Of a stretch of DNA of 64,000 nt, positions 15,600 through 64,000 are shown piece by piece (position 1 is the stretch's first letter; every line of letters starts with the position of its first letter). This DNA is from Stentor roeselii (Eukaryota > Ciliophora > Heterotrichea > Heterotrichida > Stentoridae), in NCBI GenBank assembly GCA_006503475.1, contig RSEH01000134.1, forward strand, positions 1 through 64,000, written 5' to 3'. The notes under the pieces are model-generated. The model worked only from the letters and a program-made list of their open reading frames with translations. It was not told the DNA's origin and made no database searches. The translations under genes were made by a program, and so were the position numbers.

Positions 15600-16865
15600 C
15601 CTCTTTATTATTAATGATTACCTGGTGGAATCTTAAAAAGTCTGCTAGCTTGAGATTGGTAGATTCTAAAGTGATGCGGGCAGCTGAATTAATTGATGAA
15701 GAAGTTTTTACTCAAATTATGGATAAGTTCTATGAGATGAGTATCGATGAGCTTGGAATTCTTATCGCTGAAAAGATTAAAAGAGTTTTAGAAATATTGA
15801 ATCTAGAATTAGGAAGTTTGAGCGACTCATTTTGGGGAAGAAGCTTGAAAGACCCTATAGAAATAGAAGAAGCTTTTTCTGCAATTCTTTTAAACTTTTT
15901 GCAAAATTTTATTTCTCAAAGGATCCACTTTAAAACGATTATAGAACAGTTTGCTCTATTTAGTAAAGCAAGTTTTGTTAAAATACTTAAAAGAGTAATT
16001 TGCTCTCAAGAATTACTCTCCTTCAACATCTCAGCGCTTTTATTATTTTCACAGTTCAAGTATATAGAAAACATTCCATCAGAATTTTCCATATATTCAA
16101 CTAGAACATCTCTAACAGGACCCTTTAATTCTTATGCAGAAGAATTCAAAAATTTTCTATTTAGTTACTCAATGTTTGTTGAGTATTTTGAATCTCTTAG
16201 ATCAAGAGATACTTCAGAACCTTTTGAGCAAATCATTGATCAAATTTTAAATAATATTGTTATAGTTGATAGAAGCTCTTTTACTAGCTACAACATTGAT
16301 GGCTTAACGACTTACGATAGGAAGATTTATTTGATTAAATTTGCAACAGGTACATCAGATTTAGATAAAGGGGCTACTTTTTATGTACTTTTACATGAAC
16401 TCTGTCATTTGTTTTGGAGAGTTCCTTGTAAAACCTGGTAAGAATCATTTGAATGTAAAACCCCTGAGACTTTAGTTGGTAGAAATACTTTTTCAGAAGC
16501 AGGAGATATTTTTGAAATAATTTTTTTCGGTAAAAGACATAAATTCCTCAACTTGTCTACTTGTATGTTTTTAACTTCTTTTGGTGGAGGCATGATAAAG
16601 GAAGACTTCAAAAAAAGATTTATGGAGTTGAATGAAACTCAAGAATCTGTTTCTGTTGGACTTAAAAGAGGGAATCAGCCTAACACATCAAATGATGCGA
16701 CTTCAACTTTCGTTATGCTTAAAGGATGTGCCTTTCGAAACCACAGAAATTAATTAATTAGAAACTATTATATATTTCTTAGCTTGTTCATGATTATTTA
16801 CATAATATTGATTCTTTTTTACTATCACATACTTTAACCACATATTTATGTGCTTATTTTTTTCA
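15600..16865. repeat. Left arm of a 1.25-kb inverted duplication
   Basis: Similarity to the minus-strand copy near 48095-49350 starts just before the start codon (shared TATACCTCTTTATTATTAATG) and runs about 110 nt past the stop codon. There the AT-rich 3' flank is still alignable (shared TTCTTAGCTTGTTCAT). The two arms lie in opposite orientation about 31 kb apart. No terminal repeats or target-site duplication were recognised at the ends. Confidence 0.75.
15614..16753 (+). pseudogene. Zincin-like gene copy with premature stop
   Basis: Closely matches the intact gene at 48197-49336 from its ATG (MITWWNLKKS) to its end (CAFRNHRN), roughly nine residues in ten identical. The HELCH metal-binding motif is present. 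A TAA at 16439-16441, where the other copy has Lys (AAA), stops the frame after about 275 residues, only about a dozen residues past HELCH. The downstream 100 codons remain open and similar, so the break is recent. A truncated protein could still be made, but it would lose the downstream acidic segment that might supply the third zinc ligand. Confidence 0.8.
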
Positions 16866-48196: not shown

Positions 48197-49350
48197 TTAA
48201 TTTCTGTGGTTTCGAAAGGCACATCCTTTGAGCATAACGAAAGTAGAAGTCGCATCATTTGATGTATTAGCCTTATTCCTTCTTTTAAGTCCAACTGAAA
48301 CAGATTCTTGAGTTTTATTCAGCTCTATAAATCTTTTTTTGAAGTCTTCCTTAATCATTCCTCGGCCAAAAGAAGTCAAAAAGATGCAAGTAGACAAATT
48401 GAGAAATTTATGTCTTTTACCAAAAAATATTATTTCAAAAATATCTCCTGGTTCTGAAAAAGTATTCCTACCAACCAAAGTCTCAGGAGTTTTACACTCA
48501 AATGATTCTTTCCAGGTTTTACAAGGAACTCTCCAAAACAAATGACAGAGTTCATGTAAAAGTATATAAAAAGTTGCTCCTTTATCTAAATCTGATGAAC
48601 CTGTTTCAAATTTAATCAAATAAATCTTCCTATCGTAAGTCGTTAAGCCATCAATATTGTAGCTAGTAAAAGAGCTTCTATCAACTATAACAATATTATT
48701 TAAAATTTGATCAATGATTTGCTCAAAAGGTTCTGAAGTATCTCTTGATCTAAGAGATTCAAAATACTCAACAAACATTGAGTAACTAAATAGAAAGTTT
48801 TTAAATTCTTCTACATAAGAATTAAAGGAACTTATGAGAGATGCTCTAGTTGAATATATGGAAAATTCTGATGGAATGTTTTCTATATACTTGAACTGTG
48901 AAAATAGTAAAAGCGCTGAGATGTTGAAGGAGAGTAATTCTTGAGAGCAAATTACTCTTCTAAGTATTTTAACAAAACTCGCTTCAGTCAATAAAGCAAA
49001 ATTTTTTATGATCGTTTTGAAGTGCACCCTTTGAGATATAAAATTTTGCAAAAAGTTTAAAAGAAGTGCTGCTAGAGCTTCTTCTATTTCGATAGGGTCT
49101 TTCAAACTTCTTTTCCAAAAAGACTCGCTCAAACTTCCCAATTCTGGATTCAATATATCTAAAACTTTTGTAATCTTTTCAGCTATTAGAACTCCAAGGT
49201 CATCGATACTAATCTCATAGAAATTTACCATAATTTGAGTAAAAACTTCTTCATCAATCATTTCAGCAGCCCACATCACTTTAGAATCTACTAATCGCAA
49301 GCTAGAAGACTTTTTAAGATTCCACCAGGTAATCATTAATAATAAAGAGG
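48095..49350. repeat. Right arm of the 1.25-kb inverted duplication
   Basis: Counterpart of 15600-16865 in opposite orientation. Similarity includes the coding region, about 15-20 nt before the start codon and about 100 nt after the stop. Confidence 0.75.
48197..49336 (-). CDS. Zincin-like protein with HExxH motif, intact copy
   Basis: 379 codons from ATG (49336-49334) to TAA. Mostly helical, with HELCH at about residue 267 inside a hydrophobic helix (FYILLHELCHLFWRV), the metallopeptidase signature. A downstream acidic segment (FSEPGDIFE) could provide the third zinc ligand. There is no signal peptide or membrane helix and no recognised family, so substrate and location are unknown. A near-identical copy in inverted orientation at 15614-16753 is stopped early. 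Being intact, and with most differences between the copies conservative, suggests this copy is under selection. Confidence 0.72.
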   Translation of the reverse strand: MITWWNLKKSSSLRLVDSKVMWAAEMIDEEVFTQIMVNFYEISIDDLGVLIAEKITKVLDILNPELGSLSESFWKRSLKDPIEIEEALAALLLNFLQNFISQRVHFKTIIKNFALLTEASFVKILRRVICSQELLSFNISALLLFSQFKYIENIPSEFSIYSTRASLISSFNSYVEEFKNFLFSYSMFVEYFESLRSRDTSEPFEQIIDQILNNIVIVDRSSFTSYNIDGLTTYDRKIYLIKFETGSSDLDKGATFYILLHELCHLFWRVPCKTWKESFECKTPETLVGRNTFSEPGDIFEIIFFGKRHKFLNLSTCIFLTSFGRGMIKEDFKKRFIELNKTQESVSVGLKRRNKANTSNDATSTFVMLKGCAFRNHRN

Positions 49351-50083: not shown

Positions 50084-53000
50084 ATGCTGACTAAAATCTA
50101 TCCCAAATCTCCAACCCTCTTCTACTCCAATAATAAAACGATGGCGAAAATCTTGATAGCCCAAGACGAGATAGAGATGAAGCCTGTGAACCCACTGACA
50201 GCAACATCCCCAAAAGGATCATACCAAGTGCAACCCTTGCTAAACAACATGTTTCCATCAATCCACGAAGAGATGCGATCCTTGAAGCAATGTTTCTTAG
50301 AAGGCAACCCAGTCCAAATCGTGACTCCCTTCGAAGGGACGGCTTTGGCTTTGACAAAAGACGGTTCTCACTACATCTTCTCCAGCAAGCAAAGCCGTAT
50401 AGCAGTATGCGACGCGAATAACCGGAGACTAGTCCTGGACAAGCAAGTGAAAGAAAAAGAGATCTGGACATTAGCCGTCTGTAAAAATGACTCAGTGGTT
50501 TTAATAGCAGGGACTTCAGGCCTGATCCGAAAGCTTTCATATCCTTCACTGAAGGAAATCGATACCCTTTCAGGACATGTTGGCGAAATTAACTACGTCC
50601 TTGTTTCACATGACGAGCAGTGGGTCTTTTCTTGTGGAGACGATATGACTGTCCGAAAATGGCCTTTGAATGAAACGAGTCCCAGTAGTCAAGTCTTGTA
50701 CAATCACAATGGAATCGTTTATGGAATGGGAATTTCTAATGACTCTTCTTTAATCGCCACTACTGGAGGTGAAGGGGTTTGTATTGTTTACCGAAACTCT
50801 GGAGATTTGACTGAAACTGGAACTATTCTCAGTAGATTAATGCCTGAAAATGGCGGGAATATTTTATGGATCTGCAGGTTTTCCCCTGATACTTCACTTC
50901 TCGCTGTTGGGAGTCAGGACTCGAATACTTATCTTTACAGCACTAGTGACTGGAACTTGTTAAGGAAACTTTCAGGGCATAGTGAAAGAGTGAGATGTAT
51001 GAACTTCTCACATTCTGGGCATATTCTTATCACTGGCAGCATCGACAGTACCATCATTGTCTGGGATATGAAGGGAAATAAAGACCATATTCAAATTAAG
51101 CTTCATGAAGGGTGGGTCAGAGCGACAATCATCAGTGAAAGCGACTTGTTCTGCACGTCTTTCGGAGATGATAAAAAAATCATTCGATGGAAGATCCCGA
51201 CGTTTGATAGAATGATTGCGTTAAGATCAGACGACTCTGTCATTTTACGCATTTGGGTTAGTAAAGACTCAGGAAAAGTCTTCGCTCTAGGCGATAACTA
51301 CTCAATTAGAGTATGGGATGTCTCAACAGGTTTTCAAGAAAAGTCATTTATGATCAACATTCCAAACATCTTGAATTATGCAGTTTCAGGAGACACTTTA
51401 AATCTTTACATTTTCAGTCAAGATAAAACTGAAGACGACGACGAGACCTCGAACATCATTGCAAGTCTTATTAACATAGAAACTGAAAGAATAACAAAGC
51501 AAATCACTTTAAAGTTCTTTGAACTTTGCTCGTCTTACTCAACTCCTGATAATCAATACGTGATAATTGGAACGAAATACACTGTCGACATCTACGACTC
51601 TAACTTCGAACTTCTTCACAACTTCCGAAACCATTCTTCTAAAGTCATATCAATCTTCGCAACTTTAGACAGTCGTTACTTGTTCACAGCTTCTTCTGAT
51701 GGAGAACTGATCATGTCTGAAATAAAAGCAGAGGCTCAAGTTGGAACATCGAGGAAAAACCTATCTGAAAGTAAAATGGTGAAAAGATTATTAAGAGAAA
51801 ACCCGGATCATCCAGTTCAGTTGATGAGAGTTTCAGCAAATGGAGAACTTTTGATTGCTGTTCATGCACTTTTCTTTGATATTTTCAGTATCACGAAGCA
51901 GTCAAAGATAATCACTATAACTGAAGCTGGGATTAAAAACGTGACTTTCAATGAAGACAGTACGAAAGCTTTATTCTTTGAAAGAAACTCGTTGACTGTG
52001 TTTAACATGGACAACTTTAGTATGTATTTTCGGCAAGTCTTTATAACGCCTACAAGTCACATCACTTTTGCACCTAATAAGAAATTCTGGGTGGTTTATC
52101 GAGGAAGCTCTTCTCGAATCGTTCCAAGTCATTTGAACATTGAAACATTTGACACTATTGGAAAGCGAGGTGAAGAGTCCACTTTCCGTAAGTACATCAC
52201 AGATATTATTAAAGATAAAGAGCCGAAACATAATAAAAACTTTGATAAATGGATCATAATGCCGAATGGAATGAATACGACTCACTTTTATGCTTATTTC
52301 AACTTGCCGACTTACCTTCAAAAGGCTTTAGAAGAAGGGGCTCCATTTTACCCTTCGAAGTCAGGACATACTCCTTTATCCATCGCTTTAGAGCTGAAGT
52401 ACCTTAGCTGTGTCCGAGCTGTTATCAAAGGATTGACCCAGTCAATGAAAACCAACCCTTTAACCCTTTTTTACTTCGACCGGTCATTGACCCAACTGAA
52501 CGATTTAGGGTATTCAGGCCTTCACCGTATTTACGATTACATGTTTGCTAGAAGTGTCAACAGGTCCCTTCCCAAGTTCAGTACTGATAAACCTTCACAG
52601 ATCTACATTGAAAACACGAACCTTATTCCAAGTAAAACTGACTTCATGCCTAGTGAAAGCTACTCTAATGATGGATATGCTATTATCTTTAAACAGTCTT
52701 ATTGCAAATTTCCTTTAGTTCCTGGAAGTGAAGAGTCTTTGGAGTTCATTAGAAGTCTCATTGAGTGCACTAATAATAAAATTTATGATACTGAAATTAT
52801 TAAACTACTTCTGGAAGAGAAATGGAAAAGATCTCAGTGGATCATGTTTATCATTGCTGGGGTTTTCTTGAGCTTTTCTATTTTACTTGCTGTTCACACT
52901 GTGAGGGACAGGAATGACAAGACTTTTATCATCGGTCCTTTGGTTATTGAATGTTTGTTGATTTTATATGAGTTTGTTCAGCTTTATATCAATAAGTTGG

Positions 53001-53752
53001 AGTATTTTAAAGATATTTGGAACTGGGTGGATCTGGGAAAAACTGCCTTGTTTTTAGCTTATTTCGTAATGGTTCAGATGGATAATCGAGAAAATAACTC
53101 TTTGCTGGCGATTGTTTTGTTTATTACCTTGCTTCGAGGTATCACTTTTTTCCGACTTTTCACTGAGACTAGAAAATATATTAACTTGCTGTATGAGGTC
53201 GTTTTTGACTTGATACCTTTCTTGATCATTTTTTATTACTCAGCTGTTGGGTTTTCAATGATTTTCTTGTCGTTAGGACGTGAAAGAGAAACTGATTTCT
53301 TCCAGTATGTTACTTGGGGATATCCAACTGACTTGGGTAACTATGATACTTCTAATTTTGATAAAGCTGAATGGCTTACTTACTTTTTGGTTACTTTGCT
53401 GATTTCTATTGTTATGCTCAGTCTTGTCGTTTCTATCTTGTCTGATACTTATGGACGGGTAAGTTCTCATGCCCAGGTAGCCGACAGCCAAGCCTTAGCC
53501 CAGATGATCTACGAATGCGAGCTTCTCTTTTTCTGGAACCGTAAAAGCCCAGAATCAAGATTCGTGTTTATCTGCACCGAACAAGAAGACCCAACCTTAG
53601 AAAAAGTCGACGTGAAAGAAAAAGTCGGTAAACTAAAAAATCTTGTCACGATCCTTGCGAAAAAAATCAACAACAACAGACGAATGATGAGAAAAGTCAA
53701 GGCGGAGTTCGTGGAAGACTCAGAGAAGATAATATCAAGCCTTGAGATTTAG
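50084..53752 (+). CDS. WD40-repeat / TRP-type cation channel fusion protein
   Basis: 1222 codons from ATG (50084) to TAG; a second in-frame ATG at 50141 (MAKILIAQDEIEM) is an equally plausible start. Residues about 70-650 form WD40 propellers, with clear repeats such as LSGHVGEINYVLVSHDEQWVF, HSGHILITGSIDSTIIVWDM and FALGDNYSIRVWDVST. A short ankyrin-like stretch (GHTPLSIALELKYLSCVRAV) precedes six membrane helices between about 919 and 1120 with TRP-like order: paired S1-S2, an S4 lacking a regular Arg ladder (LLRGITFFRLFTETRKYI), a pore region near ETDFFQYVTWGY, and S6 continuing into ILSDTYGRV. Cytosolic propellers on a TRP-like pore suggest a sensor or scaffold-gated cation channel. It converges on the next gene with 12 nt between stops. 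Confidence 0.85.
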   Translation: MLTKIYPKSPTLFYSNNKTMAKILIAQDEIEMKPVNPLTATSPKGSYQVQPLLNNMFPSIHEEMRSLKQCFLEGNPVQIVTPFEGTALALTKDGSHYIFSSKQSRIAVCDANNRRLVLDKQVKEKEIWTLAVCKNDSVVLIAGTSGLIRKLSYPSLKEIDTLSGHVGEINYVLVSHDEQWVFSCGDDMTVRKWPLNETSPSSQVLYNHNGIVYGMGISNDSSLIATTGGEGVCIVYRNSGDLTETGTILSRLMPENGGNILWICRFSPDTSLLAVGSQDSNTYLYSTSDWNLLRKLSGHSERVRCMNFSHSGHILITGSIDSTIIVWDMKGNKDHIQIKLHEGWVRATIISESDLFCTSFGDDKKIIRWKIPTFDRMIALRSDDSVILRIWVSKDSGKVFALGDNYSIRVWDVSTGFQEKSFMINIPNILNYAVSGDTLNLYIFSQDKTEDDDETSNIIASLINIETERITKQITLKFFELCSSYSTPDNQYVIIGTKYTVDIYDSNFELLHNFRNHSSKVISIFATLDSRYLFTASSDGELIMSEIKAEAQVGTSRKNLSESKMVKRLLRENPDHPVQLMRVSANGELLIAVHALFFDIFSITKQSKIITITEAGIKNVTFNEDSTKALFFERNSLTVFNMDNFSMYFRQVFITPTSHITFAPNKKFWVVYRGSSSRIVPSHLNIETFDTIGKRGEESTFRKYITDIIKDKEPKHNKNFDKWIIMPNGMNTTHFYAYFNLPTYLQKALEEGAPFYPSKSGHTPLSIALELKYLSCVRAVIKGLTQSMKTNPLTLFYFDRSLTQLNDLGYSGLHRIYDYMFARSVNRSLPKFSTDKPSQIYIENTNLIPSKTDFMPSESYSNDGYAIIFKQSYCKFPLVPGSEESLEFIRSLIECTNNKIYDTEIIKLLLEEKWKRSQWIMFIIAGVFLSFSILLAVHTVRDRNDKTFIIGPLVIECLLILYEFVQLYINKLEYFKDIWNWVDLGKTALFLAYFVMVQMDNRENNSLLAIVLFITLLRGITFFRLFTETRKYINLLYEVVFDLIPFLIIFYYSAVGFSMIFLSLGRERETDFFQYVTWGYPTDLGNYDTSNFDKAEWLTYFLVTLLISIVMLSLVVSILSDTYGRVSSHAQVADSQALAQMIYECELLFFWNRKSPESRFVFICTEQEDPTLEKVDVKEKVGKLKNLVTILAKKINNNRRMMRKVKAEFVEDSEKIISSLEI

Positions 53753-53764
53753 TAGTTTATCAAA

Positions 53765-55819
53765 TTACTCAGAAAACTTATAAAAAATCTTACTTCTGCT
53801 GTTTTCAAACTCTTTCATCGCATTGCTGGTTATTTTTAAATCAGCATAATCATCTTCTTTAACCCGCTTCGGACTTGCCTGGCCCCTGAGTCTAAGATTT
53901 TCTTGTCCTAACTCTGAAAGTCGATCGACAAGCCAATCATTATCATTTGCCAATTTATTCACAATGCTCGAAATAAAATCAACTTCATTAAAAAGTTGAG
54001 AAAAATCATCAGAAGGTTCATCTTTCCAGTCTTCCAAGTCCTCATCTCTTGAAAACCTTTCACAGATCTTATGAACTGAGTCCTGTAACTTCGCAATCAA
54101 ATGTTTCGAAGGGGTTTCATTGTTACCTGAACAGAGAAGTTTCAGGTCTGAATTTTGCTCTTTATAGTCAAGGCACTGGTTTTTATACAAAAGCAGCTCT
54201 TCTTTGATGTCACTGATTTTTGACTTGCTTAGCGCGAGTTCTTCTTTTAACTTCGAGTTTTGAACTCGCAGGTCCTGAGTTTCTTTCTGGTCTATCGACC
54301 GGGACTTGAAAAAAGCGAGTTCGTCTTTCATTTCTTTCGACCTTGTCTTGAGTTCCTGGATTTCTTTCGTGTCTTGAGTTTTTGACTTGTAAAAGTTCAG
54401 CTCGTCTTTGAGTTCTGAATTTTTTATTTTCAGGTCTTGGAAGTCTTTAGGGTCGATAAGGCGAGTTTTGTAAAAATTCACTTCTTCTTTCATTTCTGCA
54501 CATTTTTGACGTAAGTCTTGAAGGTCTTTAAGATCGTTTTTAGATCTTGTTAACTCGTCTTTGAGTTCTTTGAATTCTATTTTGGATCGGGTGAGGTCTT
54601 CTTTAAGTTCTTTGTTTCTAATGCGGAGTTCTTGGGCTTCTCGTGTTTCAAGAGACTTTAACTTGTTTTCTTGGTCCCTGTTGTATTTGTAAGACGAGAG
54701 CTCTTCTTGTAAGAACTTGATTTTTTCAAAGGCTTCTTCAAGTTCGTTTTCTTTTGAGTCCAGGAGACGTTTAAGTTCTGTTTGAGACTCAAGTCTGAAG
54801 TTTTCTTCTTTGGCTTTCTCCCTGACCAGCTTTTCATTCAAAGCCAGTTCTTTTTTAAGGTCCATGTTTTTTCCTTCAGTTTCTCTGATTTTTTCAGTCA
54901 TTTTCTCGAGTTTTTCAGTCATTCTCTCGAAATTTTCAGTCATTTTCTCGATTTTCTGGTCTTTTTTTTCAAGTTCACCTGAAATTTCACTGATCTGAGA
55001 TTCAAGTTTTCCGATGACCTCTAAAAGTTGTGAGTTGTTTTTTTCTATTTCCAAAGAATTCTTACGGAAGTGACTTTGCATCATTTTCTTTTCATTTGCG
55101 AGTTTTTCTTCATTCATTTCTTTGAGTTTCTCGATTTGTTCACTGTAATCATGACAAGTTTCCAATAATTCCTGAAGTCGACTCTGACATTCATCTCTTT
55201 CATCTTTTCCCTTCAAAATGATGCTATCAACATGATTTTCAAGATTTTTCAAGTTTTTTTCATAAATCGCGCACTTTTCTTCAACACTCAAGAGAATCGA
55301 ATGAAGATTCTTTTGAACGATGCTGAATTCTTTTGAATAATTTTCTAAAACTTTCGCTTCTTTCAAGTCCATTTCTTTGAACTTGCCCAAGTCTTTATAG
55401 TAGATCTGTTCCAAGTCATTTGTTTTGAAAGTCTTGCAAGACGTTGGAATTGAACTGTCCAGGACCATTTCTAGGCTTTGACTAAGTTTTTCATAACCTT
55501 CGAACATCTCCTGAATGAATCGAGAGTACTTGAAAGTGGTTTCATGACTGCATGAAAGTCGTTCAATGTACTCATAAGGCGCGATTTCCTGGTTTTCTGG
55601 CTTCGGCTTCAAAGGCGGTCTTGATTTGAGTTCGCTTTGAATGCGCCAGACCTTTGAAGAACTCTGAGCAAGTCCAAGTCTTTTAAAGACCTTTTCTCGG
55701 GTGAGTTCGTATTTTAAAGCTTGTTCATAGGACAAGGAGGCTGCGACGAGGAGTTCTGAATAGTTTTTACCTTCAGCAGTTTCGAGTAAATATAAAAAGG
55801 CTTCAACGTCCGTTGACAT
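53765..55819 (-). CDS. Coiled-coil protein with internal ~28-residue repeats
   Basis: 684 codons from ATG to TAA. Residues 1-100 are mixed helical; about 150-590 are coiled coil. A unit of about 28 residues recurs five to six times in the second half, recognisable by NSELKDELNFYKSK, SKEMKDELAFFKSR, NSKLKEELALSKSK and similar, separated by Asp/Gln-rich turns. A helical C-terminal module (residues 590-650) precedes a basic tail. A structural role is likely; no orthologue recognised. It starts 20 nt after the dynein gene's stop on the same strand and ends 12 nt from the convergent channel gene. Confidence 0.82.
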   Translation of the reverse strand: MSTDVEAFLYLLETAEGKNYSELLVAASLSYEQALKYELTREKVFKRLGLAQSSSKVWRIQSELKSRPPLKPKPENQEIAPYEYIERLSCSHETTFKYSRFIQEMFEGYEKLSQSLEMVLDSSIPTSCKTFKTNDLEQIYYKDLGKFKEMDLKEAKVLENYSKEFSIVQKNLHSILLSVEEKCAIYEKNLKNLENHVDSIILKGKDERDECQSRLQELLETCHDYSEQIEKLKEMNEEKLANEKKMMQSHFRKNSLEIEKNNSQLLEVIGKLESQISEISGELEKKDQKIEKMTENFERMTEKLEKMTEKIRETEGKNMDLKKELALNEKLVREKAKEENFRLESQTELKRLLDSKENELEEAFEKIKFLQEELSSYKYNRDQENKLKSLETREAQELRIRNKELKEDLTRSKIEFKELKDELTRSKNDLKDLQDLRQKCAEMKEEVNFYKTRLIDPKDFQDLKIKNSELKDELNFYKSKTQDTKEIQELKTRSKEMKDELAFFKSRSIDQKETQDLRVQNSKLKEELALSKSKISDIKEELLLYKNQCLDYKEQNSDLKLLCSGNNETPSKHLIAKLQDSVHKICERFSRDEDLEDWKDEPSDDFSQLFNEVDFISSIVNKLANDNDWLVDRLSELGQENLRLRGQASPKRVKEDDYADLKITSNAMKEFENSRSKIFYKFSE

Positions 55820-55839: not shown

Positions 55840-58800
55840 TTAGAAGTTTTTGAGTTCTGAATTTTCAATAAAAACACTGGAAACCTGCTCTTTTTCAATG
55901 ATTTCTTCCTTCAGCACCTTTTCAAGCAAGATGTTACTCCAGACGTCTTCATAGCTTTCTAAGTCTTCAGTGTTTTGGAAGGACATGTAGAACCTAATGG
56001 ACTCCTTTGATAAGAAGTGGTCAGGGATCTCATAGTGCTTCAGGCCTTGCACGTCAAGAAAGAGTCGAAAGGTGTTGCTGATTTTCAGTTTTTCACGCAA
56101 ATCATGCAGGGTATCAACAGTTTTTTTCCAGAAACTTGGGAATTTCGAAGTAGAAACTAACACCCAGGTCCCTTCTTCAGCGCATTTTTGAATAAGTTCT
56201 AAAGTTTCAATAGTCTCTGACTTGGAATTTTCATCGAGTTCTGGGTCAGTCCTTATCACTTCAAGACCGACTCCGTAGTAGTTCGCCAAGGAACAAATAA
56301 TGTTCACGATGTTGATGCCAGGCCAAGAGTGAAGAACTATCGGAATCGACCAACTGGCACATTTGATGAAGTGGTTTAACTTGAAGTAGTCTTCTTGGTA
56401 CTCGTAAATCGAGTTCAACTGCTCGAATATAAACTGTCGAAGTAAAGCTTTCAATGTCGAGTCCGGGTAATGCGCCGCTATCAGAATTTTCGCGAAGATT
56501 GGAAGGGTCTTGAATTGTGGACCAAGTAAAATCGCTTTAAAAACGTTGCCGATTTCAAGTTTGCTGTAGTTGTAAGCTCCTAGTTTACTTGATATTTCAT
56601 TTAAACACTCGTCAGTATCTGGAAACCAAGTAAGCAGCAGCTCTTGAAGTGCTCTGAAGTTGTCTTCAAAGTTTCCTTCCACTGGAGGCCTGTCAAAAGA
56701 ACTCATCCAAGTGCAGACTTCTGGATCTTGCATGAAAAGCTGTCCGAAAACGTCGAAGTTATCAAGAGTAATCGTTTCTCTCATCACTCCGATGTTTAAA
56801 GCGAAAACCAGTGCGAGAAGAGCGAGATTTTCTTGAGGAACTCCACTTTTAATGACATTCCAGATACTTGGCAGGAGTTCTCGACTGTAAAATTCTTCAT
56901 CAACAGTGACAGGTTTTCCTTCAGCGTCACTTCTGTTCAGGTTTACGTCTCTGAAGGTCTTCGAGCTGATCATTGCGACGATTCTCAAGAAGCTGGTCCA
57001 GGAATAAGTCACGTCTCCGATGAGCCGTCCTATTTGTTTGAGTGAAATATAAAGCAAATAGATAACATAACTGAAAGTGCTTAGAGACTGGTTCTCCACC
57101 ATCAAAGTTTCTAACATTTCTTTAGATTCTTCGAAGATCTCTTTTGATTGGTTAGTGACTTTGATTATTTCTAGAAGATCGATGAAGTTATCGTAACTTT
57201 GAAGAGAGTCCATGTCTAGTTGGGTTAATTCTAGTCTTTTTCTCATACTCACGTCTTTGAAGTCTTTTTTGGTTTTGTTGAAATTTTCCTTTACTTTTAA
57301 GAGCTTTTCTGACATCTCTGGAAGAAGATGGACTATTAAAGTTTCTTTTATTTGGTTAAGAGCTTTGTCTTCTCCTATTGAGTTGTTGTACATGAAAATA
57401 CTGGAGGACCAGAAGTAACAGGATAAGTTTAATGGAAAACGTGAGTTGAAAATGCAGATGTCTTTGAATTTCGTTGGATTTGAAGTGAATTTCAAGTTGT
57501 TTTCCCATAAATGGCTTAAAACTGGAGAGTCACTTGTAAGACCTGCTCCGATTTTCCACCCTTGAAGGTCAGTTTCAGGAAAAGCATCAGAAAAGTCTTC
57601 TAAAAATACTTGAGCTTCATGTTGCAGGGCGGATTCGACGATACTTGAAGTGTTGTAAAGAGAGCATAGGACGTGAATTGTTTTTTCTTTGGAGTAGTTT
57701 TTTGAGATTAGGTCTTGAAGTTCGTGATTCTCATCAATAAAAATTGAGACATTTTTGGTGAAGTAATGAGCGAAAATTCCTTCATAAGCATCAAGTTCTT
57801 CCATGTTGCCAGCTGTGACTTTGCCGATTAAAAGCGCTTTGAGAATCTTCCTCATGGCGATTTTATGTGAATTCAGATACTGGTCCTGCCACGCCTCATC
57901 AGTTGGAATTTCATTGGTTTCTAAAATATTACTTAACGCTCCACGCACCTCAGCCCTTTGCGCGACGTTAAGCACTCCAAGGTAAGCCAAGTTACATGCT
58001 AAAATATAAGAATCTCCAATCAAGTTCTTCTCCAATTTTTCAATTCCATTCAACTTCTCCTGTAAAGCCTGGTTAAGATCATTAACAGCAGTGATTAAAT
58101 TTTCAGTTCGAATATGTGTAATTTCGCTAGTCTTCAAAGGTTGCTTTCTTTTTTGCAGTTCAGAACTGAATCTCCGTTCTTGGTCAAGATATTGTTTCAG
58201 TTCTCTTTCCACATCCAAAATATACTTCTGCGCATAGGTGATCGAAACATTGTTATTTATGATCTCATTTTTAAGTTCTTCAATTTTCGCACTTTTCGGT
58301 GCGAGCATCTTGTTAATTTCAATTCGTTCCACAAGGGCAGTCAGATAATCATAAATCGCTAAAACAGCTGAATCTTCAAATCGACTTCGAGGTGTTTTTC
58401 CCATGTACTTGACGAGATCTTCACGAAACTTCGCAGTATGTGCAAGACTTTCTCGTGTTTTAAGCAAGTCGATGAATCCTTCATTGTCCCTCAAAGCTTC
58501 TTCTAAGGAAAAACTGCTGTCAAGTCCTGTGACCGCCAAGAGAAAATAAAGGACTTTGTTGATGTCTGCATCGTTTTTCTCTGATAATGCGACGATTTTT
58601 TCAGGTTCGTTAAGAGCTGTGATGAGGTTCGACATGGTTTCTTGGAGTTTCATTGTTTTGTTGGAAAGCATGAATTCATTTTCTTTTTGCATGATTTCTA
58701 ATTCTTCTTGAAGTTTTGAGTTGATTTTTTCTTTTTCTTCGATGAGAGTGTTTTTCATTTGCTGGTTTTTACGGATTTTCTCGATTTGAGTCTTGATTGA

Positions 58801-61800
58801 GGCGATGTTTGAAGAGGTTCTCATGGAGAAGTCTTGAAGGGAAGTCATGTTGTTTTCTAATTGAGAATGAAGCTTTTGGAACCTTTTTGTTTTGTTAACC
58901 ATTGACTCGACTCTTTGTTTGTACTCTTTGAGCTTTTCGGATCGAACAGTGATGATTGAGGACAGGAGATCGACGAAGAGGATAAGTCGTTTATTGCACA
59001 TGAAAGTTGAAATGGGAGTGGTTTCAATAGGTGAGTGGTCAAGACTGATGTAATATTCTTTTCTCTCAAAAACGCCCCTGATGTACATAAACAACTCAGT
59101 GATTATATCAGCCATTGAAGGGTCTAAGTCTCTATGCGGCAGGTAACGTTCTATCATATTACTAGTCTCAGTAAAGTCATTATGAGCAACATCTACAATC
59201 ACTTCAGCCCTTTCCACAAATCTCGGGTACTTCTGCTGAAAAGCCTCAAATTCATCAGTAGTGTTCATCAAAACAGCAACATGTAAATATTTTCTTCCTA
59301 AAACAATCGCCTGTTTAATAGGATCTTCATCTTTAACACTAACAGAAGCCAATTGAATCTTTCTTTTTTCCAGAACTGACAGTTTTTCAATAAAAACAGG
59401 AGAAAAAAACTTAGCGTCCAGGTCTTCACTGGTCACGAAACTGTTCAAATAGTCGAAACTGGCAGAGCACTTCACATGTGAAACGAGACATAAAAAAAGA
59501 CAAGGAACCCATTCATGTCCTTTTCGAACACCTTCAACGATGCTCAACAAACTATCTTCTAAGTCGCTTCTGAACTTATGGAAATCTTTCTGACTTTTTG
59601 TATGTGGTTCGACAATCCGGGTCTTTTTCAGCATGCAGGCCAGTTGAAGACACTCATAAGCCCCTTGGCCGACAGGAATTTCAACAACCGCGTGAAGACT
59701 TTCACCTTGAAGAACCCTGCAAAAGGCCCAGATGTATTCTAAAGAACTTGAATGGAGACAATTTGCACTGATAGTTAAAGTCTTTTCTTTATTTTGTAAA
59801 GAGTTCTTCTCAGCGCTTTCAATGATAAAAGTCTGAAGGTCTCTGTACTTGTTCGCATGTTGTCGGGTGAAAGGAATCATTAAGTTATAAGCCACTTCAT
59901 CTTGAGCGTAGTTTCCATACATGAAGTCAATAGTTTCTTTCGTGATTTTCAGTTTTTTGTTGATTATTTCTAAAAGTTTCTGCTCGACAGGTTTTTTTTC
60001 CCTCACGGCGTCTTTGAATCCTCTAAAAATTTCATAAATCAAGATTTCACTGATTCTTTCCTCTTCTTTCAAGTCAGGTTCCGGGTAAAGTTCGCAGTTG
60101 TTAGTGAAAAACAATAGAGTTCTGAAATTTCTCAATGTTCTCGGAAAAGAAAACGCAGGGTCGTCTTTAAACTCGATTCGAACATTGCTGATGATAGAAG
60201 TGATCAGTTTTAAATAACGATGAACGAGCATATCGATGGGGGTTGACCGAAGATAGACAAAGTTGATTAAAGCTTGCTTGAACAAAGAGTTTTCAGGACT
60301 TTCACAGTAAAACAAGTGCTGACCTGAACTTTTAACTACTTCTCGATCAGTTGTCAAGAAGTTAATGTCTCTGCATTGCTTGAAGGTGAGGTCTTTAGGC
60401 TCATAGTACCCTGCTTGTTTCACGAAATATCTCAGCCCTTCTACTAGTTCTCCTTTCGTGTCAAGGTTGATATCCTCGACAACGACTAGAATCCTTTTAT
60501 CGATATCTGAGTTCAGCACTTTAAATGAAGACTTACGAGTGATCAGTTTGTAAATCTCGTGAAGTGAAAAAGTCTTGTCGTAGTTTTTTAGAATTGATTG
60601 ATCGGAATAACCGCTTGACATTATCTTCGCTATTGAAGACTTACCTGATGCCACTGGACCGAACAGGTGGATGTGAAGAAGAGATGGAACGTGAGTTGAA
60701 GAAGGGGTTAAAAAATGCTTGCAAAGGAAAAAACAACGGCTTATATGCGCTGAAGGAACTAAAATCTCAGCAGGCTGAGGAGAAGTCAGCCCATATTGAG
60801 AAAATTCTGTGAAAATCTGGAAGAAACTCAGAGATTCCCAGTCGATGTAATTGTCGAAAAGCTCTAAATCGTCTGGGTAGAAATATTTTCCTCTTAAGTT
60901 TGAAAAGTGCTTTGAGAATAAACTGCTGAAGATCTTTTTCTCGTCTTCTGAAAGAACTACTCCGAATGTCCAGATCACAGCAAAGATTAAACCGATCTCC
61001 AGTCGAGCCTTTACTTCTAAAAGGCCCTGATGTGTGGAGCCGTATTTTACTGCATAGTCAAATATTTCTTGGTAACTCGGTGAAAAAAGACCCTCAGCTT
61101 CTCCTAAAGGCCGGACATATGGAACTATCCCTAATTCGATCACACTTGACAATAATCGACAAAAGGCTAAAGTGATTGACTTTGTATTCCATATGTCAAT
61201 ATTTTTAAATTGCTTGTGAAGTTTTATTATAAAACTTCTGATCTTTTCATGAAAAATGTCTAAAATCCACTGACTTAGCAAACCGTACTTTATGAACTTT
61301 TCACTCAGTTCTTTGCTTACAGGTACTAAATAACTATCCCAATTCACGTAGTTTTCACGTACATAGTGAGTTGAAAGCTTTGTGAACAGAGCTGGACTCA
61401 CACTTTCAGCTGAACAAGTCTCAAAAATAACTTGCATGTCTCTTGGAACTCGCAAATGGATCAAATTCGGCAGGACTAAAAAGTTACTAAAAGAATCATT
61501 CAAAGTCTTCTGAGACAAACACAACTCCCAAGGCTCTAACGTGTAACTTTCTGAATTCAGCAAAGGTGACTGATCAACAAACTGCAAAAAACACTCAGAC
61601 CACCAAGGTTTTAACTTTTCGCATTCAAGAACGAGCCACTTCGCATTGAATTCAAAAGTTTCATTGAATGCGTTTTCGATGAGACTTGCGAGGATTCCTG
61701 GCCTTTGAATCTTTTCTGAGTTCAAAGACCCGAAAAGTTGCTTTTCTGTGAAAATGTTTGGGTTTAGGAAATATTTGTTTACTTGTAATTCGTAGAGGTT

Positions 61801-64000
61801 TTTTAAGGCTGTTGATAAAAGATGGAGAATTGTTGATTTTCCGGATGATTTTTCACCGAGGATTAGAATTCCTTTGTGCATTCGAAGACCGTAGTAGATT
61901 TCTTCAGCTGTTCTTGTTAGGTGGTCTTGGACTGTTAGCTTTAAGGAGGCGAAAGATTGCTCAAGACCTTTTCTTAGCTCGGGTAACTCGAAACCTCCTC
62001 TTTGCCTTTTTCTGAAAACGAAGGCAACGGAATCGTCTACTGCATCAAATATGAATTTTTCACTTTCTTTATCGAAACCTCCTTTTTTATGCATGAATTT
62101 TGGGATAAAGTAAAGTTTGCATGCTTTGGCCACTGACTGTGTTTCACCCATTTCAAGATCATTATCAGCTATGATAACATCTCTAAATTTTTTAGCAATA
62201 GTTACAACAGTCATAATATCACGACTTGAAATCGCAAGCTGAAGGTCAAGTTTTTCAATAATATTTCTGCAAAAATCAGCGACCATTCGACTAAGTCCTT
62301 GATGATATCTGAATCCTTCCCTGACCAACATGAAAGCAGCAGTTGACTTATAATCAGGCCGAATCATCTCAGTAGTTCTGAAGCTATTTGAAAGAGTGAC
62401 AAGCAGATTTGGGTTAATCTCAACGAAATGGTCTACAGAGCCCATAACAACGAATAAGGAGTTAGAAGATTTTATCGGAACTTTTACTTGTTTCGAGGAA
62501 TTTTCGCTCACTCCGGACCTGGATGACTTTTGGATGCTTGACTCGTTTTGACTGTCGCCTGTTACTGAAATTAGGAACTGCTGTTGGACCATTTGGATTT
62601 CTTTTATTATGATTTGAAGGTCTGAGAGACTTAGTTTCGTGATGTGTTCAAATAAGACCCAGAAATTCGCTAAGGCAGCACCGTTTAAAACTTGCATTAG
62701 GGAACTTGTGGCTGTCCCTGAGTTTATGCATAGTCGTTTACTGCCCATTCCACACCAGTTGGCCAGCTCTTCAAAAACATCTCCAGCAAATGAATGACTG
62801 GAGTTAGTTTTAAACAAAACAGAGCTCGACTCTCTAATACTGCAAGCCATGAACAAAAAGTACTTAGTAGTAAGTGGAGTACATAAAAGTCGATACCCAG
62901 TTCCCAAATATTCCCAATTTTGCACCAAATGAAGTCCTCCACATTCAATTTTCGTGACATTTTCATCCGCTTTCCAATAAACCCTGAAATGTTTCTGCCA
63001 TTCGAAGTCCTCAGGAGAAAAAATTTTTTTTTCAAGTAAACTACCAACGATTTCCCGTTGATAACAAAGAAAAAAAACAAGACTTCTCAAAGACATCATA
63101 TGAAGAGAAGTCATTCTTTGTTTAGTTTCCTGGTCAGCCTGCATGCTTTTAGTGATTTGATTAATCCAGAACTGAAGCCTTAAAAACAATCCCCGATAAT
63201 TTTTACTTTGAAGAATTTTCATCATATCAAGTTTGCTCTGCCCCATCGATTTCGTCTGTGCCAAGCTTCCAAAATAAACTTTCGAAAAATGTTCTTCATA
63301 ATCTTCAGGAATATTTTCACTGTCATCAAAACTTTCATCCGAGTTAGATCCAGCATCTTTAGCATTTTCTTCCATGAGTTCAGTGATTTCATGAGTTAAA
63401 ATCAAGTTAATAGCTGTGTAAATGATTTGTTGGGGATAGTCAAGAACCCATTCATCTAGACTTTGTTTAGGAAAGGTGGAAACAGCGAAGCTGATCATTT
63501 TTGACAATGATTCTTTCATTTGTTTTTCAACCTCACCGATCCATCCTTCGACGCCTTCATGAATTCCGACGGATTTCTCGAAAAAGAAGAGTTCTTCATT
63601 AAACCCGAACATTCCAAGGATTTCAAAAGGATGCATGCCTCCGAGATCACTTGATTCAGGGTACTTGTCCCTCAAGTCCTGTTGTTTCGTAACCAAGTTG
63701 CTGTTCGACAAGACAATCGCACTCGTGTCTTGAGCAATGGAAGACTCAGAAAATTCAAAAGGACCTAACAAGTCACCAACAGCTGGGGTAAAAGAATTGA
63801 AAGGCAACTTGTCAGTATCTCCACTTTCTTCGGTAGTGAACGTCCTTGGGTGGATTTCTTTAACGTAAAATCTACTACACCCTGGAAAAATCACGGAAAT
63901 GTGCTTGTCGTACTTTTCTCGACTGTGAATTTTGCTTAAAAACTCTAAGAGCTGAGGGTCTGATAAGAAGAAAAATCTGGGAAAGTTCACTCTGCGGTTT
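55840..64000 (-). CDS. Divergent dynein heavy chain with degenerate AAA1 and AAA4, 5' part beyond window
   Basis: The frame is open from the right edge to TAA at 55840, more than 2716 codons; the N-terminal tail lies outside. It begins in the linker (FPRFFFLSDPQLLEFLS) and proceeds through the motor ring. AAA1 is recognised by FRVYWKADE and YRLLCTPLTTKYF, yet its Walker A position (near 62800-62830) reads SVLFKTNSSHSF instead of GPAGTGKT, and the Walker B site reads FWVLFEHITK. AAA2 keeps GEKSSGKST (about 61835-61862) and AAA3 keeps GPVASGKSS (about 60628-60668). AAA4 has EIPVGQGAYECL, no P-loop. The stalk coiled coils and a microtubule-binding-domain-sized insert are present (about 58950-58150). 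The protein ends soon after AAA6 begins and lacks the usual C-terminal domain. Clearly dynein, but unlikely to be a normal motor. Confidence 0.9.
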   Translation of the reverse strand, partial: NRRVNFPRFFFLSDPQLLEFLSKIHSREKYDKHISVIFPGCSRFYVKEIHPRTFTTEESGDTDKLPFNSFTPAVGDLLGPFEFSESSIAQDTSAIVLSNSNLVTKQQDLRDKYPESSDLGGMHPFEILGMFGFNEELFFFEKSVGIHEGVEGWIGEVEKQMKESLSKMISFAVSTFPKQSLDEWVLDYPQQIIYTAINLILTHEITELMEENAKDAGSNSDESFDDSENIPEDYEEHFSKVYFGSLAQTKSMGQSKLDMMKILQSKNYRGLFLRLQFWINQITKSMQADQETKQRMTSLHMMSLRSLVFFLCYQREIVGSLLEKKIFSPEDFEWQKHFRVYWKADENVTKIECGGLHLVQNWEYLGTGYRLLCTPLTTKYFLFMACSIRESSSVLFKTNSSHSFAGDVFEELANWCGMGSKRLCINSGTATSSLMQVLNGAALANFWVLFEHITKLSLSDLQIIIKEIQMVQQQFLISVTGDSQNESSIQKSSRSGVSENSSKQVKVPIKSSNSLFVVMGSVDHFVEINPNLLVTLSNSFRTTEMIRPDYKSTAAFMLVREGFRYHQGLSRMVADFCRNIIEKLDLQLAISSRDIMTVVTIAKKFRDVIIADNDLEMGETQSVAKACKLYFIPKFMHKKGGFDKESEKFIFDAVDDSVAFVFRKRQRGGFELPELRKGLEQSFASLKLTVQDHLTRTAEEIYYGLRMHKGILILGEKSSGKSTILHLLSTALKNLYELQVNKYFLNPNIFTEKQLFGSLNSEKIQRPGILASLIENAFNETFEFNAKWLVLECEKLKPWWSECFLQFVDQSPLLNSESYTLEPWELCLSQKTLNDSFSNFLVLPNLIHLRVPRDMQVIFETCSAESVSPALFTKLSTHYVRENYVNWDSYLVPVSKELSEKFIKYGLLSQWILDIFHEKIRSFIIKLHKQFKNIDIWNTKSITLAFCRLLSSVIELGIVPYVRPLGEAEGLFSPSYQEIFDYAVKYGSTHQGLLEVKARLEIGLIFAVIWTFGVVLSEDEKKIFSSLFSKHFSNLRGKYFYPDDLELFDNYIDWESLSFFQIFTEFSQYGLTSPQPAEILVPSAHISRCFFLCKHFLTPSSTHVPSLLHIHLFGPVASGKSSIAKIMSSGYSDQSILKNYDKTFSLHEIYKLITRKSSFKVLNSDIDKRILVVVEDINLDTKGELVEGLRYFVKQAGYYEPKDLTFKQCRDINFLTTDREVVKSSGQHLFYCESPENSLFKQALINFVYLRSTPIDMLVHRYLKLITSIISNVRIEFKDDPAFSFPRTLRNFRTLLFFTNNCELYPEPDLKEEERISEILIYEIFRGFKDAVREKKPVEQKLLEIINKKLKITKETIDFMYGNYAQDEVAYNLMIPFTRQHANKYRDLQTFIIESAEKNSLQNKEKTLTISANCLHSSSLEYIWAFCRVLQGESLHAVVEIPVGQGAYECLQLACMLKKTRIVEPHTKSQKDFHKFRSDLEDSLLSIVEGVRKGHEWVPCLFLCLVSHVKCSASFDYLNSFVTSEDLDAKFFSPVFIEKLSVLEKRKIQLASVSVKDEDPIKQAIVLGRKYLHVAVLMNTTDEFEAFQQKYPRFVERAEVIVDVAHNDFTETSNMIERYLPHRDLDPSMADIITELFMYIRGVFERKEYYISLDHSPIETTPISTFMCNKRLILFVDLLSSIITVRSEKLKEYKQRVESMVNKTKRFQKLHSQLENNMTSLQDFSMRTSSNIASIKTQIEKIRKNQQMKNTLIEEKEKINSKLQEELEIMQKENEFMLSNKTMKLQETMSNLITALNEPEKIVALSEKNDADINKVLYFLLAVTGLDSSFSLEEALRDNEGFIDLLKTRESLAHTAKFREDLVKYMGKTPRSRFEDSAVLAIYDYLTALVERIEINKMLAPKSAKIEELKNEIINNNVSITYAQKYILDVERELKQYLDQERRFSSELQKRKQPLKTSEITHIRTENLITAVNDLNQALQEKLNGIEKLEKNLIGDSYILACNLAYLGVLNVAQRAEVRGALSNILETNEIPTDEAWQDQYLNSHKIAMRKILKALLIGKVTAGNMEELDAYEGIFAHYFTKNVSIFIDENHELQDLISKNYSKEKTIHVLCSLYNTSSIVESALQHEAQVFLEDFSDAFPETDLQGWKIGAGLTSDSPVLSHLWENNLKFTSNPTKFKDICIFNSRFPLNLSCYFWSSSIFMYNNSIGEDKALNQIKETLIVHLLPEMSEKLLKVKENFNKTKKDFKDVSMRKRLELTQLDMDSLQSYDNFIDLLEIIKVTNQSKEIFEESKEMLETLMVENQSLSTFSYVIYLLYISLKQIGRLIGDVTYSWTSFLRIVAMISSKTFRDVNLNRSDAEGKPVTVDEEFYSRELLPSIWNVIKSGVPQENLALLALVFALNIGVMRETITLDNFDVFGQLFMQDPEVCTWMSSFDRPPVEGNFEDNFRALQELLLTWFPDTDECLNEISSKLGAYNYSKLEIGNVFKAILLGPQFKTLPIFAKILIAAHYPDSTLKALLRQFIFEQLNSIYEYQEDYFKLNHFIKCASWSIPIVLHSWPGINIVNIICSLANYYGVGLEVIRTDPELDENSKSETIETLELIQKCAEEGTWVLVSTSKFPSFWKKTVDTLHDLREKLKISNTFRLFLDVQGLKHYEIPDHFLSKESIRFYMSFQNTEDLESYEDVWSNILLEKVLKEEIIEKEQVSSVFIENSELKNF

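What the first reader, a model, noticed from the sequence alone, without database searches (positions are those of the whole stretch)
55840..64000. Dynein heavy chain that has lost its main ATPase site
Seen: the linker, ring order, stalk and a stalk-tip-sized insert of a dynein heavy chain are present, but AAA1 has neither Walker A (SVLFKTNSSHSF where GPAGTGKT is expected) nor the usual CFDEFNR Walker B. AAA4 has lost its P-loop, AAA2 and AAA3 keep theirs, and the chain stops shortly after AAA6 starts. Known: AAA1 hydrolysis drives all characterised dyneins, so this chain should not walk. The frame stays open for more than 2700 codons, so it is maintained by selection. Inference: a structural or regulatory dynein-like protein, possibly comparable to the animal dynein-like protein DNHD1, or an ancient ciliate invention.
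Basis: partly seen in the sequence, partly recalled or inferred. Interest (0 to 1): 0.78.

Follow-up and report, generated by a model that had tools for sequence, protein, structure and literature searches.

The report
Dynein-like protein with dead motor
A ciliate keeps an intact, very large gene for a relative of the cilium motor dynein that has lost its main fuel-burning site and its tail end, so it probably serves as a non-moving structural or regulatory part rather than as a motor.

Summary
The gene is one intact standard-code ORF on the minus strand, contig 55840-67404 (3404 bp beyond the window), 3854 codons plus stop. AAA1 has neither Walker A nor the DE of Walker B, and the aligned AAA2 arginine finger is lysine. 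AAA2 and AAA3 keep P-loops; AAA4 does not. The AAA6 lid and C-terminal domain are missing. A DNA pattern for GPAGTGKT has 23 matches in this genome, one on each of the other 23 AAA4-bearing dynein contigs, none here. It does not look like a decaying pseudogene: 259 stops expected, none seen; codon usage equals that of 12 other dyneins. The linker is best preserved (23 of 27 invariant positions), AAA1 poorly (30 of 76), the stalk worst among the parts present (3 of 15). The tail is collinear with other dynein tails, best with inner-arm types. Best reading: a maintained non-motor paralogue of an inner-arm dynein, used through tail and linker. New here: C390, a second divergent dynein, keeps an AAA1 P-loop but has changed Walker B, sensor I and arginine finger. 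Kinship to animal DNHD1 could not be tested. The genome looks like a heterotrich ciliate's.

The parts
55840..64000 (-). dynein-heavy-chain-like gene, its C-terminal 2719 codons and stop out of 3854; continues to contig position 67404 (ATG)
   Evidence: single open frame in the standard code; Pfam hits
63793..64000 (-). end of the linker domain (DHC_N2, whole match 63793-64890 of the contig, 239.7 bits)
61834..62916 (-). degenerate AAA1 as matched by PF12774 (52.3 bits; best match on each of the other 23 dynein contigs 324-538 bits)
   Evidence: alignment; coordinates
62635..62658 (-). position of the AAA1 Walker B: VLFEHITK in place of xCFDEFNR (residues 1583-1590)
   Evidence: alignment; coordinates
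61834..61857 (-). AAA2 P-loop kept, GEKSSGKS (residues 1850-1857)
60637..60660 (-). AAA3 P-loop kept, GPVASGKS (residues 2249-2256); an intron-like 15-mer overlaps it
59200..59757 (-). AAA4 (PF12780, 28.3 bits in the genome search, 25.1 bits and just under the cut-off in the protein scan), P-loop lost
58015..58974 (-). stalk coiled coil and tip region; length about kept, 3 of 15 invariant positions kept (boundaries approximate)
56011..56343 (-). AAA6 large subdomain (PF03028, 20.0 bits, below its cut-off)
55840..55842 (-). TAA stop; no AAA6 lid, no C-terminal domain after it

Best explanation
A maintained, non-motor paralogue of a single-headed inner-arm axonemal dynein heavy chain in a ciliate (probably a heterotrich). 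Shown: the ORF is intact and has dynein-like codon usage; tail and linker are those of a dynein; the AAA1 Walker A and the DE of Walker B are absent; AAA2 and AAA3 keep P-loops; the AAA6 lid and C-terminal domain are absent. Inferred: AAA1 neither binds nor hydrolyses ATP, so no linker power stroke occurs; the protein docks through its tail and linker like an inner-arm dynein; ATP at AAA2 and AAA3 only stabilises the ring; it acts as a passive spacer, tether or regulator, most likely in cilia, in place of or beside a real arm.
For: Intact 3854-codon ORF; 259 stops expected by composition, 0 observed; codon-usage score 0.082, within the 0.071-0.095 of 12 other dyneins, composition control -0.031 +- 0.007. 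Dynein pieces with stops exist in the same genome: C511, C339, C84, C403, and weaker C148, C356, C428. AAA1 Walker A, Walker B and the aligned AAA2 arginine finger (R to K) all changed. GPAGTGKT pattern on 23 of 23 other dynein contigs, 0 here. Kept invariant positions are most frequent in the linker (23 of 27). The tail aligns collinearly with 8glv chain Mm (residues 224-1128 to 222-1123, E 9.3e-27) and with this genome's C24 (227-1103, E 1.5e-27). The three best solved matches of the motor part are DNAH6 chains, and DNAH6 is the best named match of C24.
Against: No transcript, protein or localisation data. No orthologue was found, so selection could not be measured directly. The tree does not place the gene (branch 5.92 against a median of 0.68), and grouping with C24 alone is nearly rejected (p-AU 0.055). 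Tail and linker are the least diverged parts, so their best hits could reflect slow change rather than close kinship. Stops inside a match are not by themselves decay: C28 and C390 each show one in-frame TAG. Docking site and role are inferred only.
Confidence: 0.6

Rival explanations
1. It belongs to an old clade of dead dyneins that includes animal DNHD1, and perhaps C390 of this genome; the loss of AAA1 function is ancient and shared.
For: Window gene and C390 held together fit no worse than the free tree (p-AU 0.608, log-likelihood 1.13 higher). A review calls DNHD1 an orphan dynein-related gene or 'ghost gene' (passage of PMC8754002); bi-allelic DNHD1 variants are reported in men with malformed sperm flagella (passages of PMC9916431).
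Against: Long branches attract, so the test is weak. Identical replacements in the two proteins are 10 of 92, with 7.4 expected by chance. The best solved matches differ: DNAH7 and DHC2 for a 1719-residue part of C390, DNAH6 for the window gene. C390 keeps an AAA1 P-loop. DNHD1 could not be compared.
Confidence: 0.15
2. A pseudogene caught early in decay.
For: Very high divergence, loss of catalytic residues and of the C-terminus; dynein pieces with stops do exist in this genome.
Against: 0 stops against 259 expected, dynein-like codon usage in all eight 500-codon segments, kept P-loops in AAA2 and AAA3, 23 of 27 invariant linker positions. Inference: divergence of this size takes far longer than an open frame survives without selection.
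Confidence: 0.05
3. Still a motor, driven from AAA3 instead of AAA1.
For: AAA3 keeps GPVASGKS and an ED pair in Walker B.
Against: AAA3's GPPGGGRN-type stretch is lost, there is no AAA6 lid, stalk and tip are poorly conserved. From general knowledge AAA3 is regulatory in characterised dyneins.
Confidence: 0.04
4. A gene-model or assembly artefact that hides a normal AAA1 and C-terminus.
For: A tiny 15-nt intron is likely in C390, and one intron-like 15-mer lies in this ORF.
Against: No AAA1 P-loop in any of six frames over the locus; no Dynein_C match on this contig; no intron-like stretch of 13-30 nt over the stop; splicing out 15 nt cannot create GPAGTGKT from this DNA.
Confidence: 0.02

Closest known systems
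Single-headed inner-arm axonemal dynein heavy chains (DNAH6 group; this genome's C24 and C295, and C44 that groups with C295)
   Same: tail and linker collinear, ring order, stalk-plus-tip length 336 against 343
   Different: AAA1 Walker A and B, AAA2 arginine finger, AAA4 P-loop, AAA6 lid and C-terminal domain lost; about 21% identity to C24 over the two longest matches
DNHD1 of animals
   Same: described as an orphan, dynein-related gene (passage); 4753 residues, variants found in men with malformed sperm flagella (passages)
   Different: cannot be compared here: no DNHD1 sequence in the collections searched; what DNHD1's AAA1 looks like was not seen in any text I read
C390 of the same genome
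   Same: very divergent dynein-like protein, AAA1 Walker B D to E, sensor I N lost, aligned arginine finger R to K
   Different: keeps AAA1 P-loop GCGTSGKT and a weak C-terminal domain; best solved matches of the part searched are DNAH7 and DHC2 rather than DNAH6

Membership tests
Dynein heavy chain (by descent) | linker domain DHC_N2 | tested here: met
   239.7 bits in one piece, cut-off 31.9
Dynein heavy chain (by descent) | AAA modules in dynein order with a stalk between AAA4 and AAA5 | tested here: met
   AAA_6 and lid over their cut-offs, AAA_7, AAA_8 and Dynein_heavy under theirs, in dynein order; alignment; stalk length
Dynein motor | AAA1 Walker A GPAGTGKT | tested here: not met
   SFAGDVFE; the DNA pattern is on 23 of 23 other dynein contigs
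Dynein motor | AAA1 Walker B with DE and AAA2 arginine finger | tested here: not met
   FEH for FDE; aligned finger R to K
Dynein motor | AAA1 sensor I asparagine | tested here: inconclusive
   MGS for MNP if no gap is allowed (by eye); the aligner's gapped placement keeps an NP
Dynein motor | AAA6 lid and C-terminal domain | tested here: not met
   no PF18199 match on this contig; 0 of 26 invariant positions; yeast dynein lacks most of this domain (recalled), so this alone would not exclude a motor
Dynein motor | microtubule-binding tip that works | tested here: inconclusive
   length about kept, 3 of 15 invariant positions kept in stalk and tip; structure prediction never ran
Single-headed inner-arm dynein | tail homologous along its length | tested here: met
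   from residue 224 on; the best matches do not cover the first 223 residues
Single-headed inner-arm dynein | tree placement among them | tested here: inconclusive
DNHD1 | orthology to animal DNHD1 | not testable with these tools
   no DNHD1 chain among the PDB matches; no animal genomes held

The most novel reading that the evidence does not exclude
A clade of catalytically dead dynein heavy chains, kept since early eukaryotes and including this gene, C390 and perhaps DNHD1, works as a non-motor component of cilia. The 'ghost gene' DNHD1 would then be the animal remnant of a real, functional class of pseudo-dyneins.
Probability: 0.12. Interest if true: 0.82.

Novelty: new variant of a known kind. 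Interest (0 to 1): 0.57.

Why it matters
Dyneins are understood as motors in which AAA1 drives the stroke. A selected, full-scale heavy chain with no AAA1 site would be a pseudo-motor, comparable to pseudokinases, in one of the great motor families. It would show that tail and linker are worth keeping without the engine, and it offers a single-exon test case for the open question of what orphan dyneins such as DNHD1 do.

Tried and rejected
Tried without result: relatives of part of the window gene (window 59000-63999) in viral contigs and prokaryote genome contigs, and of five ordinary dyneins in viral contigs, gave none. No closer paralogue turned up in the own genome (17 of 98 candidates scored). 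Structure prediction of the stalk was never accepted, so no fold search was made. The tree cannot place the gene; four of seven clade tests did not finish. The paper by Kollmar on dynein evolution is not held; I know its view of DNHD1 only as cited in PMC8754002 (passage). Searches for a described dynein lacking the AAA1 P-loop: one search found 0 papers; searches listed none whose title or shown abstract start reports one (listings only). That is no proof that none is in print, as most subscription papers are missing.

Considered and rejected: genetic-code artefact (TAA, TAG and TGA all end ORFs here); a spliced repair of AAA1 (no P-loop in any frame); an intron over the stop codon (none of 13-30 nt); the downstream ORF as the missing C-terminus (only a DUF6776 hit below its cut-off; different frame); shared ancestry with C390 from identical replacements (10 against 7.4 expected).

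Against my reading or open: an intron-like 15-mer GTAAN8TAG overlaps the AAA3 P-loop; such 15-mers occur once in 151,848 bases of the 12 other dynein ORFs, so 0.08 are expected in this gene and 1 is seen. If it were spliced, the AAA3 P-loop would go too. I think it is chance, because unspliced it gives a canonical P-loop at the aligned place. Rows dropped: 12 of the 23 other dyneins were aligned; C1 was fetched but left out because its ORF is interrupted, and 10 were not fetched. Domain boundaries for the counts were set by me. Names and places of sensor I, arginine finger and the AAA6 lid are recalled, not from a call. Reading the stop-bearing dynein pieces as decayed copies is inference; contamination was not tested.

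Full report
What is there. Fetching the contig beyond the window closes it: ATG at contig 67404, in-frame TAA at 55842-55840, 3854 codons, no internal stop in the standard code. The genome is 44.39 Mb in 522 contigs. A doubled CCCTAACA pattern has 660 overlapping matches, 0 for the control; those listed lie at the first bases or high ends of contigs, checked for C5, whose contig ends at 153588. A putative 15-nt intron was found in a dynein gene, and TAA, TAG and TGA all end ORFs. The heterotrich Blepharisma has CCCTAACA telomeres and mostly 15-16 bp introns but reads TGA as tryptophan (passages of PMC9942806), so this is most likely another heterotrich with the standard code, such as a Stentor (this last step is recalled).

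The AAA1 site is gone. In an alignment with 12 full-length dyneins of the same genome, GPAGTGKT is replaced by SFAGDVFE and FDEFNR or LDEFNR by FEHITK. The aligned AAA2 arginine finger that serves AAA1 is K instead of R. Sensor I reads MGS for MNP if no gap is allowed (my reading); the aligner instead opens gaps and keeps an NP, so this residue is ambiguous. A six-frame scan of contig 55601-67600 finds only the AAA2 and AAA3 P-loops. A DNA pattern for GPAGTGKT has 23 matches in the whole genome, one on each of the 23 other contigs that carry a dynein AAA4 domain, none here; the reversed control pattern has 0. Thus 23 of 24 AAA4-bearing dynein genes keep the motif and this one does not. C390, which has no AAA4 match, is a further gene without it.

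Other parts. AAA2 GEKSSGKS and AAA3 GPVASGKS are kept, AAA4's P-loop is not. The chain covers most of the AAA6 large subdomain and then ends. Dynein_C matches the 23 other dynein contigs, C390 (weak) and a stop-bearing piece on C84, but not this contig. The stalk with its tip is 336 residues long against 343 in C24, C44 and C295 and 344-360 in the other nine dyneins. Of 271 columns identical in the 12 others the gene keeps 107: linker 23 of 27, AAA1 30 of 76, AAA2 17 of 38, AAA3 9 of 19, AAA4 8 of 18, stalk and tip 3 of 15, AAA5 10 of 30, AAA6 large 7 of 22, lid and C-terminal domain 0 of 26. With one other dynein left out in turn, the worst (C131) keeps 271 of 342 (this control is lenient by construction).

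Is it maintained? By base composition 259 stops would be expected in 3854 codons and none is seen; the five other frames hold 174 to 322. The codon-usage score is 0.082 (12 other dyneins 0.071 to 0.095; composition control -0.031 +- 0.007) and is positive in all eight 500-codon segments. Dynein pieces with stops exist in this genome on C511, C339, C84 and C403, and weaker ones on C148, C356 and C428. Stops alone do not prove decay: C28 and C390 each show one in-frame TAG, which in C390 fits a tiny intron. No orthologue was found, so Ka/Ks could not be measured. I have no transcript data.

Descent. The tail, residues 224-1128, aligns collinearly with 8glv chain Mm (222-1123) and, over 227-1103, with C24 of this genome. 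The three best solved matches of the motor part are DNAH6 chains, and DNAH6 is the best named match of C24 and C295. That 8glv is a Chlamydomonas axoneme and that these chains are single-headed inner-arm dyneins is recalled knowledge. The maximum-likelihood tree of 14 rows does not place the gene; its branch is 5.92 against a median of 0.68. Holding it with C390 is not rejected (p-AU 0.608), with C24, C44 and C295 not rejected (0.307), with C24 alone nearly rejected (0.055); four further tests did not finish.

A second divergent dynein. A search with AAA1 showed C390 (87 bits). It is a 4284-residue protein once one 15-nt GT..AG stretch with an in-frame TAG is taken as an intron. It keeps P-loops in AAA1 (GCGTSGKT), AAA2 and AAA3, but AAA1 Walker B reads IEE for FDE, sensor I lacks its N, and the aligned arginine finger is K. 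It keeps 97 of 272 invariant columns. The best solved matches of the 1719-residue part searched are DNAH7 and DHC2, so the two genes may be independent.

How it most likely works. With no AAA1 site the linker stroke of known dyneins cannot be driven (established knowledge of the family). What is best kept is the linker and, from the matches, the tail, the parts that carry and dock the arm. I infer a passive or regulatory arm-like part of the cilium, with ATP at AAA2 and AAA3 holding the ring together. Shown: anatomy, loss of motifs, and signs of maintenance. Inferred: ciliary place, docking partners, role.

Known or new. A review text describes DNHD1 as a 'ghost gene' and orphan, perhaps becoming a pseudogene (passage of PMC8754002); men with bi-allelic DNHD1 variants have malformed sperm flagella (passages of PMC9916431). 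Whether DNHD1 lacks AAA1 I could not read or test. Literature searches listed no paper whose title or abstract start describes a ciliate dynein of this kind; I read passages of five papers only. I file it as a dynein heavy chain by descent, not a dynein motor, and as a new variant of a known kind.

Noticed in passing
G000:C390:71023-83892 + (loci L041, L042): Second very divergent dynein-like gene, 4284 residues with one putative 15-nt intron; AAA1 P-loop kept but Walker B, sensor I and aligned arginine finger changed.
   Followed up: partly
G000:C286:14999-16753 - (not fetched): A 1056-codon open frame with a dynein tail and linker match but no AAA_6, AAA_8 or Dynein_C match listed on that contig; possibly a tail-only dynein or a fragment.
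   Followed up: no
G000:C511, C339, C84, C403, C428: Pieces of dynein genes, most with stops inside: perhaps decayed dynein copies in the genome.
   Followed up: no
window 50084-53752 +: 1222-codon ORF with WD40 repeats followed by an Ion_trans domain, a combination that struck me as unusual.
   Followed up: no
window 15614-16441 + and 48197-49336 -: Two ORFs that share 49 of their first 60 residues (MITWWNLKKS...), a duplicated gene pair about 32 kb apart on opposite strands.
   Followed up: no
window 60637-60660 -: Intron-like 15-mer GTAAGTCTTCAATAG overlaps the codons of the AAA3 P-loop; 0.08 expected in this gene from the 12 other dyneins.
   Followed up: partly
window 53765-55819 -: 684-codon ORF 20 bp downstream on the same strand, coiled-coil-like by eye, no Pfam family over its cut-off.
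   Followed up: partly
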